Assembly (NCBI RefSeq): GCF_002797355.1 | Contig: NZ_KZ454939.1 | Location: forward strand, 1,149,828-1,213,827 | Direction of reading: 5' to 3' | Origin: Bacillus xiapuensis | GTDB taxonomy: Bacteria > Bacillota > Bacilli > Bacillales > Domibacillaceae | Length of the DNA stretch: 64,000 nt | In this document: piece after piece, positions 39,991 through 43,829 of the stretch | How positions within the stretch are numbered: position 1 is the first letter of the stretch | How the letters are laid out: each line of letters opens with the position of its first letter | Made by a program: the position numbers and the translations under genes | The notes under the pieces: generated by a model | Database searches by the model: none | Told to the model about the DNA's origin: nothing | What the model saw: the letters and a program-made list of their open reading frames with translations, nothing else

Positions 39991-41109
39991 ATGAGCACTG
40001 AATTATATGATGCTCTTTTATATTTGGAGAAAGAAAAAGGAATTGAAAGAGGTTTAATTACAGAAGCGATTGAAGCCGCGCTGATTTCTGCATACAAACG
40101 CAATTTCAATCAAGCGCAAAATGTCCGAGTCGATTTAAATATTGAGACTGGCACAATGCGTGTTTTTGCCCGCAAGGAAGTCGTGGAAGAGGTTTTTGAT
40201 TCCCGCTTGGAAATTTCGGAAGCGGAAGCGCGCGAAATCAATCCGGCGTATGAAATTGGCGATATCGTGGAGATGGAAGTGACTCCGAAGGACTTCGGCC
40301 GCATTGCTGCGCAAACGGCCAAGCAAGTAGTAACACAGCGGGTGCGGGAAGCGGAAAGAGGCATAATCTATTCAGAATTTGTTGACCGCGAAGAGGATAT
40401 TATGACTGGAATTGTTCAAAGGCAAGATTCTCGCTTCATTTACGTAAGCCTTGGTAAAATTGAAGCGCTGCTGCCGCTATCTGAGCAAATGCCCAATGAA
40501 AGTTATAAACCGCATGACCGCATTAAAGTGTATATCACAAAGGTAGAACGCACAACGAAAGGACCGCAAATCTTCGTATCGAGAACCCATCCGGGACTGC
40601 TCAAGCGCTTATTTGAAATTGAAGTTCCTGAAATTTTCGATGGAACGGTGGAAATTCGTTCCGTTTCACGCGAAGCGGGCGACCGTTCTAAAATATCTGT
40701 TTACGCGGAAAATCCGGAGGTTGATCCGGTGGGAGCATGCGTAGGTCCAAAAGGAAACCGCGTCCAAGCCATCGTGAACGAACTGAAGGGCGAAAAAATT
40801 GATATCGTCAAATGGTCTGAAGATCCGGTTGTATTTGTGGCTAATGCCCTAAGTCCGTCCAAAGTGCTGGATGTACAGGTGGATGAAGAAGCGAAGGCTA
40901 CCACAGTTGTTGTGCCGGATTATCAGCTGTCTCTGGCGATCGGCAAACGCGGACAAAACGCCCGTTTGGCGGCTAAATTAACCGGCTGGAAGATCGATAT
41001 TAAAAGCGAAACAGATGCCCGTGAAGCAGGGATATATCCTCGGGAAGATGGCGAGGCACATCCTCCCGCAGATGAGGCTAGCGACTTTTCCTCCGAAGAA
41101 ATTGAATAA
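39991..41109 (+). CDS. nusA: NusA, transcription elongation/termination factor
   Basis: Binds RNA polymerase and nascent RNA, stimulating pausing and weak intrinsic termination. The N-terminal RNAP-binding domain begins [20 protein letters not shown]. The S1 domain spans about residues 135-200 ([20 protein letters not shown]), and two KH domains follow ([20 protein letters not shown] and [20 protein letters not shown]). It has 372 residues with the short Gram-positive C-terminus. The start is ATG 39991. Confidence 0.97.
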
Positions 41110-41122
41110 GAGGTGAAGAAAA

Positions 41123-41398
41123 ATGGCTAAATCTAAAAAAGTTCCGCTAAGAAAATGTGCGGCAACAGGCGAGATGAAAGCAAAGAAAGAAATGGTGCGG
41201 ATCGTCCGTTCAAAAGAAGGCGAGGTGTCCGTGGATCTGACGGGAAAGAAACCAGGCCGCGGCACTTACTTATCCAAAGATAAAGAAGCAGTTGAAATGG
41301 CTAGAAAAAGAGGCGTCTTATCAAGACAGCTAAATGCAGAGGTTCCGGATGCCGTTTATGATGAGCTGCTTGCTCTCGTGGAAAAGGGGAATCATTGA
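41123..41398 (+). CDS. ylxR: YlxR family protein (RnpM), RNA-binding
   Basis: A 91-residue DUF448/YlxR protein with the family pattern [20 protein letters not shown] and [20 protein letters not shown]. It is always next to nusA. It has recently been named RnpM for a role in modulating RNase P, as I recall; older work calls it a nucleoid/RNA-binding protein. AGAGGTGAAG precedes the ATG. Confidence 0.93.
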
Positions 41399-41401
41399 TC
41401 C

Positions 41402-41728
41402 ATGAAGCAGCCGCAATGGGCAGGGTTACTCGGGTTAGCTAATCGCGCAAGAAAGGTCATATCAGGTGAAGAGTTGACAGTTAAAGAAATTCAGAAAGGC
41501 CGGGCTAAGCTCGTATTGCTGTCGCGTGATGCCTCCCCCAATACAAAAAAGAAGATACAGGACAAAGCCGGGTATTATCAGGTGCCTGTAAAATGGGTGG
41601 ATAATCGCTATGCTCTGGGCCAAGCAATCGGCAAAGATGCAAGGGTGGTTCTAGCTGTTTTAGATGCGGGGTTTGCCGGCAAGCTTAGCTCCCTAATTGA
41701 TCAATGTGCGCGAGAAGCCGGTATTTAG
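41402..41728 (+). CDS. ylxQ: YlxQ, L7Ae-family k-turn RNA-binding protein
   Basis: L7Ae/L30e fold with GLLGLANRARKVISGEELTV, KAKLVLLSRDASPNT-like RNA-binding core and ALGQAIGKDARVVLAVLDAG. It has 108 residues, a few longer at the C-terminus (QCAREAGI) than I expect for Bacillus YlxQ. That extension abuts the decayed start of infB. In B. subtilis the orthologue is a k-turn binder, also called RplGA. Confidence 0.93.
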   Translation: MKQPQWAGLLGLANRARKVISGEELTVKEIQKGRAKLVLLSRDASPNTKKKIQDKAGYYQVPVKWVDNRYALGQAIGKDARVVLAVLDAGFAGKLSSLIDQCAREAGI

Positions 41729-41858
41729 CAAAAAAAAGCGAATGAACGCGCCCAAGACAAGAGCGCATCAAGCAAAAGCAGTCTCCGATAAGGAGAAAAG
41801 GTGACATGTAGAAGTCTCTAGCCATATCACTGTTATTGAAGAGGAGGCTATACAAACA
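41729..41858 (+). pseudogene. Decayed N-terminal domain of infB (relic)
   Basis: In other Bacillaceae IF-2 begins with a small domain (B. subtilis MAKMRVYEYAKALNVSSKE... as I recall it). Here frame 41741-41776 reads NERAQDKSASSK, alignable with YEYAK....SSK. After one extra A in AAAA (about 41774-41777) the next frame reads AVSDKEKR, a TGA stop (41802-41804), then [18 protein letters not shown] running in frame into the present protein. The residue spacing matches the intact family throughout. No ATG/GTG/TTG start with a ribosome site exists for it. The alignment is by eye. Confidence 0.65.
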
Positions 41859-43829
41859 TTGGATAAATCGTTAAAGAATAAATCATCTAATCAAACAAAA
41901 GCTGGTCAGAACAAACAAGCAGGCAATAGAGGTAAAGCAGGGGGCAAATCGCCATCCGGCAACAAAAAAGGATTGAATCAAGGAAAAGGGAATAATAAAA
42001 ATCAAGGCCGCAATAAAAATCAAGCCAAAAGAAATAATAAGCCGGCCCCGCAACAAGCCCCAAAAGTGAAAGAGCTGCCGGAAAAAATTACATTCACCGG
42101 TTCGTTAACGGTGTCAGAGCTTGCGAAGAAATTAAACCGTGAACCGTCAGAGATCATTAAAAAGCTCTTCATGGTAGGCATCATGGCAACCATTAACCAG
42201 GAACTTGACAGCGATGCTATTGAACTGATCGCCGGAGAATACGGCGTAGAAGTCGAAGAAGAAGTGCTGATTGATAAAGCGGATCTTGAAATTTATTTTG
42301 AGCAAGAAGACGAAGGGACCTTGATCGAACGCCCTGCTGTTGTGACAATTATGGGGCACGTCGATCATGGAAAGACAACTCTTCTGGATTCCATCCGGCA
42401 CACGAAAGTAACGGAAGGAGAAGCCGGCGGCATCACTCAGCACATCGGCGCTTATCAGATCGAAGCGGGAGATAAAAAAATCACCTTCCTTGATACACCA
42501 GGGCACGCAGCCTTTACAACAATGCGGGCGCGCGGTGCGAAAATCACCGATATTACCATTCTCGTGGTTGCCGCTGATGACGGAGTCATGCCGCAAACCA
42601 TTGAAGCCATCAATCACGCCAAAGCAGCGGAAGTTCCGATCATTGTGGCGGTGAATAAAATCGACAAACCGACAGCTAACCCGGATCGCGTCATGCAGGA
42701 ATTGACTGAGCATGGCCTTGTGCCTGAAGACTGGGGCGGCGATACGATTTTCGTTCCTTTATCAGCCAAGCATGGAGAAGGAATTGATACGCTGCTGGAA
42801 ATGATTCTGCTAGTGGCAGAAGTAGAGGAGTTAAAAGCCAGCCCAGATCGCCGCGCCATCGGTACAGTGATTGAAGCTGAACTGGATAAAGGACGGGGTT
42901 CTGTGGCGACATTGCTCGTGCAAAACGGAACCTTGCATGTGGGAGACCCTATTGTCGTCGGAAATACGCACGGCCGTGTGCGGGCTATGGTCAATGACAT
43001 TGGCCGGCGCGTCAAAACAGCGGGGCCTTCTACTCCGGTAGAAATTACCGGACTCAATGAAGTTCCTTTAGCTGGAGACCGCTTTGTCGTATTTAAAGAT
43101 GAAAAAACCGCCCGCCAAATTGGGGAAGCGCGTGCACAGGAAGCACTGCAGGCTCAGCGAAGCGAGAAAACCCGCGTCAGCTTAGACAACTTGTTTGAGC
43201 ACATGAAACAAGGGGAAATGAAAGAAATAAATATCGTTTTAAAAGCGGATGTGCAAGGTTCGCTTGAAGCGGTGGCGGCTGCTCTGCAAAAGATTGAAGT
43301 AGAGGGCGTCAATGTAAAAATAATTCACACAGGCGTTGGTGCTATCACAGAATCTGATATTATCCTCGCTTCCGCTTCCGATGCCATCGTGATCGGCTTC
43401 AACGTCCGTCCGGATGTGAATGCTAAGCGGGCGGCGGAAGAAGAAGAGGTGGATGTTCGTCTCCATCGCATTATTTACAAAGTAATTGAAGAAATCGAGT
43501 CAGCTATGAAAGGCATGCTTGATCCTGAATTCCAAGAAAAAATTATTGGTCAAGCGGAAGTGCGCCAAACGTTTAAAGTATCAAAAGTGGGAACTATTGC
43601 CGGTTCTTATGTGACAGAGGGCAAGGTGACCCGCAACAGCGGCGTGCGTTTAATCCGTGACGGAATTGTAATTTTTGAAGGGGAAATCGATGCGCTTAAG
43701 CGTTTCAAAGATGATGCCAAAGAAGTCAGCCAAGGCTACGAATGCGGCATTACCATCAAGAACTTCAATGATGTGAAAGAAGGAGACGTTATTGAAGCCT
43801 TTATTGAGGAAGAAATCGAGCGCAAATGA
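41859..43829 (+). CDS. infB: Translation initiation factor IF-2, apparently lacking the N-terminal domain
   Basis: GTPase that brings fMet-tRNA to the 30S subunit. A Lys/Gln/Asn-rich linker (about residues 1-65) is followed by the IF2_N domain ([20 protein letters not shown]), the G domain ([14 protein letters not shown] about 165, [12 protein letters not shown]) and domains II-IV. It has 656 residues. The TTG start has AGGAGG (41842-41847) 11 bases upstream; that site is made from old Glu-Glu-Ala codons. The N-terminal ~45 residues normal for Bacillus IF-2 are missing and survive only as a relic upstream. The result resembles the short internal-start isoforms known for IF-2. Confidence 0.94.

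What the first reader, a model, noticed from the sequence alone, without database searches (positions are those of the whole stretch)
41726..41900. infB seems to have lost its N-terminal domain by mutation; a TTG inside the old gene is now the start
The sequence shows 130 non-coding bases between ylxQ and the infB TTG start that still read like IF-2 domain N1 when frames are joined: NERAQDKSASSK, +1 frameshift at [33 protein letters not shown], then straight into the present protein. Residue spacing matches the intact family (B. subtilis N-terminus recalled from memory). The start codon and its ribosome site are gone, so several independent lesions are needed, which argues against one sequencing error. 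The replacement ribosome site AGGAGG (41842-41847) is built from the old Glu-Glu-Ala codons. IF-2 is known to have short isoforms from internal starts in E. coli and B. subtilis; here the long form appears to be abolished and only a short form left. This would be a natural experiment on what the N1 domain does.
Basis: partly seen in the sequence, partly recalled or inferred. Interest (0 to 1): 0.75.

Follow-up and report, generated by a model that had tools for sequence, protein, structure and literature searches.

The report
Recurrent loss of IF-2's N1 domain
This bacterium's gene for translation initiation factor IF-2 has lost its first domain by mutation and now appears to start at an internal site that its relatives also carry; related bacteria have lost the same domain independently, which gives a natural experiment on a domain whose job is still debated.

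Summary
Between ylxQ (stop 41726-41728) and the infB TTG start (41859) lie 130 bases of decayed IF-2 N1-domain sequence, and no other credible N1 was found in the genome. A sequencing slip is very unlikely. In the window's GTDB family, 7 of 23 genomes with the locus have a complete N1 and 16 have lost it, by different lesions. The best tree gives four losses in the family; three are well supported. Three further losses, two by in-frame deletion, lie elsewhere in the order.

All 7 intact family members carry it at N1 codon 46, and its DNA is conserved beyond coding: in codons 29-49, 14 of 14 informative synonymous codons are invariant, against 102 of 529 after codon 49. The likely history: an ancestral start for a short IF-2 made the long form dispensable, and N1 then eroded repeatedly.

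IF-2 with a single IF2N domain is already known (57 of 191 proteins; PMC1780047, passages read). What is new is the recent, repeated, traceable loss.

The parts
39991..41109 (+). nusA, upstream gene of the operon; in E. coli its protein is the reported partner of N1
   Evidence: ORF; C-terminal acidic tail kept in 16 of 16 N1-less family genomes
41402..41728 (+). ylxQ (YlxQ, 108 aa)
   Evidence: ORF; 60 relatives found
41729..41807 (+). decayed 5' part of the former N1 coding region; original ribosome site and start codon gone, frame broken, TGA at 41802-41804
   Evidence: alignment to 10 family members, shuffles, mismatch counts
41808..41870 (+). conserved block: 3' part of the former N1 coding region, now leader and start region of short infB
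41842..41847 (+). Shine-Dalgarno AGGAGG of the internal start
   Evidence: of 11 non-Domibacillus family genomes 6 have AGGAGG and 5 AGGGGG here
41859..43829 (+). infB, TTG start, short IF-2 of 656 aa with one IF2_N domain (residues 82-131, about 42102-42251), G domains and C domains

Best explanation
The ancestor of this family made two forms of IF-2 from infB: a long one from the normal start and a short one from an internal AGGAGG...TTG site at N1 codon 46, as two-form infB genes do in E. coli and B. subtilis. In the window's lineage the long form's ribosome site, start codon and frame were lost. Only the short IF-2 is made, from the old internal site, whose ~60-nt DNA block is kept by selection while the rest of N1 decays. 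The same loss happened independently in other lineages of the family. Shown: the lesions, the intact relatives, the internal site and its conservation, the tree. Inferred: that the TTG site is used, that both forms were made ancestrally, that N1 loss is tolerated because of the internal site, and that any N1-NusA link is gone in these species.
For: N1 is complete in 7 of 23 family genomes and lost in 16. In the order sample 379 of 397 genomes match the N1 profile; of the 18 without a match one also has no detectable infB. AU tests reject grouping the window with G002+G003, with G023 or with Domibacillus (p-AU 1.5e-77, 3.2e-4, 3.9e-3). The internal site is in 7 of 7 intact family members (-10.9 to -11.9 kcal/mol), against 3 of 48 non-family named loci at the same codon (-9.5 to -9.7). 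Synonymous codons in the block: 14 of 14 invariant against 102 of 529, and 0 of 605 other windows as high. Decay is unequal: summed over the 7 intact partners, the window differs at 195 of 539 upstream and 35 of 357 block positions, B. thermotolerans (G023) at 148 of 482 and 7 of 350, while intact pairs differ at 190 of 1847 and 34 of 1071. Single-pair p values: 1.8e-5 to 0.034 for the window, 1.1e-7 to 9.0e-4 for G023. Short IF-2 core stays under purifying selection, dN/dS 0.016-0.032 for three window pairs (dS near saturation). Two B. thermotolerans short-IF-2 clusters lie on 8 contigs, which may include redundant records.
Against: No expression, peptide or read data. TTG is a weak start, and 11 nt separate AGGAGG from TTG. 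Intact pairs also differ about three times less in the block than upstream, a ratio close to the window's, so for the window the case rests on the small excess in the block, not on the ratio. In G002 and G003 the contrast is not significant (p 0.09 to 0.80). AU does not reject one shared loss for G023 and Domibacillus (p 0.205), and the SH test does not exclude window + Domibacillus (p 0.09); G002+G003 with G023 was not tested. Internal sites at or below -8 kcal/mol beyond codon 10 also occur in 9 of 48 non-family loci. The predicted hairpin over the SD folds no better than shuffles (z -1.36 to +1.07 in seven family sequences) and has no covariation.
Confidence: 0.87

Rival explanations
1. Sequencing or assembly errors broke an intact N1 reading frame.
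For: Indels in A runs are a usual error type, and one lesion here lies beside AAAA. Raw reads could not be checked.
Against: Start codon, ribosome site and frame are all lost, and 24 to 33 of 76 to 78 aligned upstream bases differ from each of the 7 intact relatives. Neighbouring ORFs are unbroken. Other family members have other lesions. Assembly: 3 contigs, completeness 100, contamination 0.04.
Confidence: 0.03
2. The long form survives by a start or frame change not recognised here (non-canonical start, programmed frameshift).
For: Rare start codons exist in initiation-factor genes (recalled: infC AUU in E. coli). In G002 the N1 frame is still open behind a lost start.
Against: In the window the infB frame holds a TGA at 41802-41804 and the alignment to intact relatives needs more than one gap. 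The N1 profile does not match positions 1-15 here.
Confidence: 0.04
3. The upstream sequence never was N1; the genome simply has an intergenic spacer.
For: The upstream 79 bases are only weakly similar to some intact relatives (31 and 68 of 500 shuffles reach the score for G005 and G020).
Against: E 2.5e-7 for the N1 profile, and 0 of 500 shuffles against G001 and G004 for the upstream part. Same place between ylxQ and infB and similar spacing as in intact relatives (ylxQ stop to TTG 133 against 142-145).
Confidence: 0.02
4. The block is conserved only because N1 was lost recently and coding constraint held until then; it has no role of its own.
For: G002 and G003 show no significant contrast, and intact pairs show a contrast of similar ratio to the window's. 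The SD hairpin is statistically unremarkable.
Against: Synonymous codons are invariant in the block of the 7 intact genomes (14 of 14). B. thermotolerans has 0 or 1 changes in 50 block positions against 5 of 7 intact genomes and 3 against the other two, while 18 to 26 of 66 to 70 changed upstream. Domibacillus keeps ATGACAAGGAGG (ATGACGAGGAGG in G010) and a TTG in 12 of 12 genomes though the rest of N1 is gone.
Confidence: 0.15

Closest known systems
Two-form infB genes (IF2 alpha and IF2 beta/gamma) of E. coli and B. subtilis
   Same: One gene, a long form and a short form from an in-frame internal start (PMC1805508 and PMC1780047, passages read; PMC12297416, introduction read)
   Different: Here the long start and frame are destroyed and only the internal start is left; that start lies inside N1 itself, at codon 46
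IF-2 proteins with one IF2N domain (57 of 191 in PMC1780047, passages read)
   Same: Domain content: a single IF2N before the G domains; the authors infer that only the shorter form is present
   Different: Here the remnant, intact sisters and the retained start are visible, so the route of loss can be read on a tree. Which species the 57 are was not seen (figures not held)
Thermus thermophilus IF-2 (571 aa; PDB 5lmv, organism of that entry recalled)
   Same: Chain residue 5 aligns to window residue 84, so it begins near the single IF2N; [quoted passage not shown] stearothermophilus or E. coli (PMC4611024, passage)
   Different: Distant lineage; no remnant was looked for
   Same: Short IF-2 without N1, with congeners that keep it
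   Different: In-frame deletion that keeps the original ribosome site and TTG start. A record titled P. megaterium CH447_14T (L046) keeps N1

Membership tests
Bacterial translation initiation factor IF-2 | IF2_N, GTP-binding, EF-G_D2 and IF-2 domains in order | tested here: met
   Pfam PF04760, PF00009, PF22042, PF11987 above cut-off
Bacterial translation initiation factor IF-2 | nusA-ylxR-ylxQ-infB-rbfA operon order | tested here: met
   ORF list; nusA, infB and rbfA matched in relatives; gene names partly recalled
Long (alpha) IF-2 with N1 | N-terminal N1 copy of IF2_N joined in frame to the rest | tested here: not met
   One IF2_N copy in the window protein, two in the relative; frame and start lost
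Short-form-only IF-2 (single IF2N) | One IF2N domain and no N1 elsewhere in the genome | tested here: met
   (next best N1 match E 0.148)
Two-form infB with internal start | In-frame internal start with ribosome site | tested here: met
   Site in window and in 7 of 7 intact family members
Two-form infB with internal start | Short protein actually made from that start | not testable with these tools
   Needs N-terminal peptides or ribosome profiling
IF2 N1-NusA coupling (PMC12297416) | N1 bound to NusA KH2-AR1 | not testable with these tools
   Reported for E. coli; the NusA tail is not lost in 16 of 16 N1-less family genomes (judged by eye)

The most novel reading that the evidence does not exclude
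A ~60-nt mRNA element embedded in the N1 codons is a dedicated, possibly regulated, start region for a short IF-2. It was gained in the ancestor of this family and so loosened selection on the long form, setting off repeated loss of N1. The species of this family, intact, freshly broken and fully cleared, would then be a graded natural series for what N1 does, for example coupling IF-2 to NusA.
Probability: 0.4. Interest if true: 0.7.

Novelty: new variant of a known kind. Interest (0 to 1): 0.56.

Why it matters
N1 is present in 379 of 397 sampled genomes of the order, yet its role is unsettled. Proposals include binding of the ribosome (PMC7037019 and PMC4611024, passages), genome integrity (PMC12297416 introduction), a part in cold-induced condensates through the N-terminal region (PMC11838494, passages) and NusA binding (PMC12297416); the last three come mostly from E. 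coli. Closely related strains with and without N1, including fresh losses, allow those claims to be tested by comparison rather than by deletion alone. The case also shows how an internal start inside a gene may make the gene's own first domain expendable.

Tried and rejected
NusA co-loss: I expected the NusA C-terminus to change with N1. By eye it does not: the stretch past KH2 keeps an acidic tail in 16 of 16 N1-less family genomes as in the 7 intact ones. This neither supports nor excludes an N1-NusA link in these bacteria.

SD-sequestering hairpin: an 11-pair stem over the AGGAGG site is predicted, but the seven family sequences fold no better than shuffles (z -1.36 to +1.07). On nine distinct rows (11 genomes) 96.0% of 99 cells pair, as in the column shuffles (96.2%), with 0 of 11 pairs changed on both sides; slid versions pair at 34 to 72%, which is expected when the stem was read off these sequences. 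Left as unproven.

A new promoter for infB: none found by the simple scan of 41100-41900.

N1 supplied in trans: no second credible N1 match in the genome.

One loss for several N1-less lineages: AU rejects four of the five groupings tried. The fifth, G023 with Domibacillus, is not rejected, and the SH test keeps window + Domibacillus (0.09). IQ-TREE warned that 5000 replicates are few for AU.

Odds left as they were.

Full report
What is there. The window holds the operon rimP-nusA-ylxR-ylxQ-infB-rbfA-truB of a Bacillaceae (gene names partly recalled). ylxQ ends at 41728 and the first canonical infB start is the TTG at 41859, 11 nt after AGGAGG (41842-41847). The infB frame opens at 41805 after a TGA and has no earlier ATG, GTG or TTG. 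The encoded IF-2 has 656 aa and one IF2_N domain; B. aerolatus IF-2 has two.

Is it N1? A profile of 12 intact N1 sequences matches the window here at E 2.5e-7, over profile positions 16-54 of 55 with one TGA inside; the next best place in the genome is E 0.148. A DNA alignment with 10 family members shows the remnant in register. The 51 bases before the TTG score above 500 of 500 shuffles against each of seven intact relatives. For the upstream 79 bases, 0 of 500 shuffles reach the score for G001 and G004, but 1, 3, 7, 31 and 68 of 500 do for G019, G022, G021, G005 and G020. So the homology of the first third rests on the closest relatives and on position. The GGGGGTGA ribosome site and the start codon of the intact relatives have no counterpart in the window.

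Relatives. A scan of named genomes with YlxQ gave 60 loci, of which 59 hold infB. A regular expression for the N1 start found N1 in 54 and not in 5: FJAT-42315, B. thermotolerans, two Domibacillus and Priestia aryabhattai B8W22. The 54 include SAS-127, whose N1 frame is open but whose start is gone, and one Lachnospiraceae. In the window's GTDB family, 23 of 24 genomes have the locus. N1 is complete in 7 (G001, G004, G005, G019-G022). The lesions differ. G002 and G003 share a destroyed start region, and G003 has a further one-base deletion. G023 has no start, about 18 bases fewer upstream and a one-base deletion before AGGAGG. Domibacillus keeps only the last stretch before the TTG.

Outside the family. 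An N1 profile search of 397 genomes of the order gave no match in 18. One of them, G223, is incomplete and has no detectable infB; infB was found in the other 396. The remaining 17 are 9 Domibacillus, 5 of genus g48 and 3 of genus g109. For g48 I read 3 of 5: an in-frame deletion with ribosome site and TTG start kept, while the congeners G066 and G104 have N1. All 3 of g109 were read: IF-2 begins MSKVR and goes straight into the linker. G336 has kept the start but has two stop codons inside N1, while its congener G277 is intact. That these three are separate losses is inferred from the lesions and from relatives with N1, not from a tree. Because the search reads through stops, a match does not prove a working N1, so losses among the 379 matching genomes may be undercounted.

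How many losses in the family? A tree from six proteins (2982 columns, LG+F+R4, ultrafast bootstrap; some genes partial or missing in some genomes and outgroups) gives these supports: G001-G004 with the window 99, G002+G003 100, G019-G022 with G023 62, those two groups together 81, with G005 91, Domibacillus 100. With no regain this means four losses. AU tests reject the window with G002+G003 (1.5e-77), with G023 (3.2e-4) and with Domibacillus (3.9e-3; SH 0.09), and G002+G003 with Domibacillus (3.4e-3). They do not reject G023 with Domibacillus (0.205). G002+G003 with G023 was not tested. So three losses are well supported and four are best.

The internal start is old. In 7 of 7 intact family members a TTG at N1 codon 46 follows a site binding the anti-SD (tail recalled) at -10.9 to -11.9 kcal/mol. 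Among 48 non-family named loci with N1, 9 have a site at or below -8 beyond codon 10 (first 150 codons scanned), and 3 of these are at codon 46, at -9.5 to -9.7. Over codons 29-49 of the seven intact genes, 14 of 14 informative synonymous codons are invariant, against 11 of 19 in codons 1-28 and 102 of 529 after codon 49; none of 605 other 21-codon windows is as high.

Decay. Summed over the seven intact partners, the window differs at 195 of 539 upstream and 35 of 357 block positions, G023 at 148 of 482 and 7 of 350; intact pairs differ at 190 of 1847 and 34 of 1071 (sums; partners are related, so sums are descriptive). Single-pair Fisher tests give p 1.8e-5 to 0.034 for the window and 1.1e-7 to 9.0e-4 for G023. 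For G002 and G003 they give 0.09 to 0.80, not significant. Against the reading: the upstream-to-block ratio among intact pairs (about 3) is close to the window's (about 4), so coding constraint may explain part of it; the strongest case is G023. The infB core is under purifying selection in losers and keepers (dN/dS 0.010-0.063 over 12 pairs; synonymous sites near saturation in the window pairs).

Reading. The simplest account is an ancestral two-start infB whose long form was lost repeatedly. Two in-frame forms of IF-2 are known in E. coli and B. subtilis (PMC1805508 and PMC1780047, passages read). IF-2 with one IF2N was counted in 57 of 191 proteins (PMC1780047, passage), so the product is of a known kind. 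The function of N1 is open. PMC12297416 (sections 4 and 13 read, 11 and 14 in their first part) reports that in E. coli IF2 Domain I binds NusA, with the contact predicted to be mainly N1 and two following strands, and that deleting Domain I slows growth and lengthens the lag after a medium change. It adds that neither the IF2 N-terminus nor the NusA C-terminus is conserved and that other species need study. In this family the NusA tail past KH2 is kept whether or not N1 is. Papers on G. stearothermophilus and E. coli say the N-terminal domain binds or anchors IF-2 to the 30S subunit or ribosome (PMC7037019 and PMC4611024, passages). Species that have just lost N1 are a test of such claims.

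Print. Searches for IF2 N-terminal domain isoforms with Bacillus and infB, IF2 N1 and NusA, two forms in B. subtilis, loss and internal start, IF2N in Bacilli, Domibacillus with IF-2 (64), Priestia megaterium, B. megaterium and truncated IF2 (68) listed no paper whose title or abstract start describes N1 loss within Bacillaceae. Several lists were capped (15 of 47, 15 of 368, 12 of 167, 6 of 13, 5 of 6) and the library holds open-licence papers only.

Domibacillus detail. For 9 of 12 genomes the stretch from the ylxQ stop to infB was aligned. In 8 of the 9 a 6-pair hairpin can form whose 5' arm includes the ylxQ stop codon; G010 lacks the arm in the alignment. 48 of 48 cells pair and the covariation score is reached by 0 of 500 shuffles; 3 pairs have changes on both sides (30 of 500 shuffles reach 3), and pair types do not exceed shuffles (165 of 500).

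Noticed in passing
L106-L117 (Domibacillus), between ylxQ stop and infB AAGGAGG: Small hairpin whose 5' arm includes the ylxQ stop codon (48 of 48 cells paired in 8 of 9 aligned sequences, 3 pairs with both sides changed); function unknown, perhaps shielding infB's start from ylxQ translation.
   Followed up: partly
L127 (G336), from the ylxQ end (1552) to the opening of the infB frame (1709), infB strand: N1 with start and ribosome site kept but two stop codons inside, upstream of an open IF-2 frame; could make a free N1 peptide or be a fresh loss.
   Followed up: partly
L124-L126 (Priestia, genus g48): In-frame deletion of N1 with the original ribosome site and TTG start kept, in a genus whose other members keep N1.
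   Followed up: partly
P0010 (SAS-127) and P0018 (Bacillus sp. Hm123): Databases give these IF-2 proteins starts inside N1 (MCEYAK..., MSNKVV...). The DNA of SAS-127 shows the normal start is lost, so its annotated start is doubtful; the DNA of Hm123 was not read.
   Followed up: partly
window 41736-41796, - strand: Three terminator-like stem-loops on the minus strand inside the decayed N1 (mean 0.7, sd 0.8 in shuffles of 41100-41900).
   Followed up: no
P0002 (952 aa): IF-2 with the G-domain stretch repeated in tandem, on a contig of 23.8 kb; possibly an assembly artefact.
   Followed up: no
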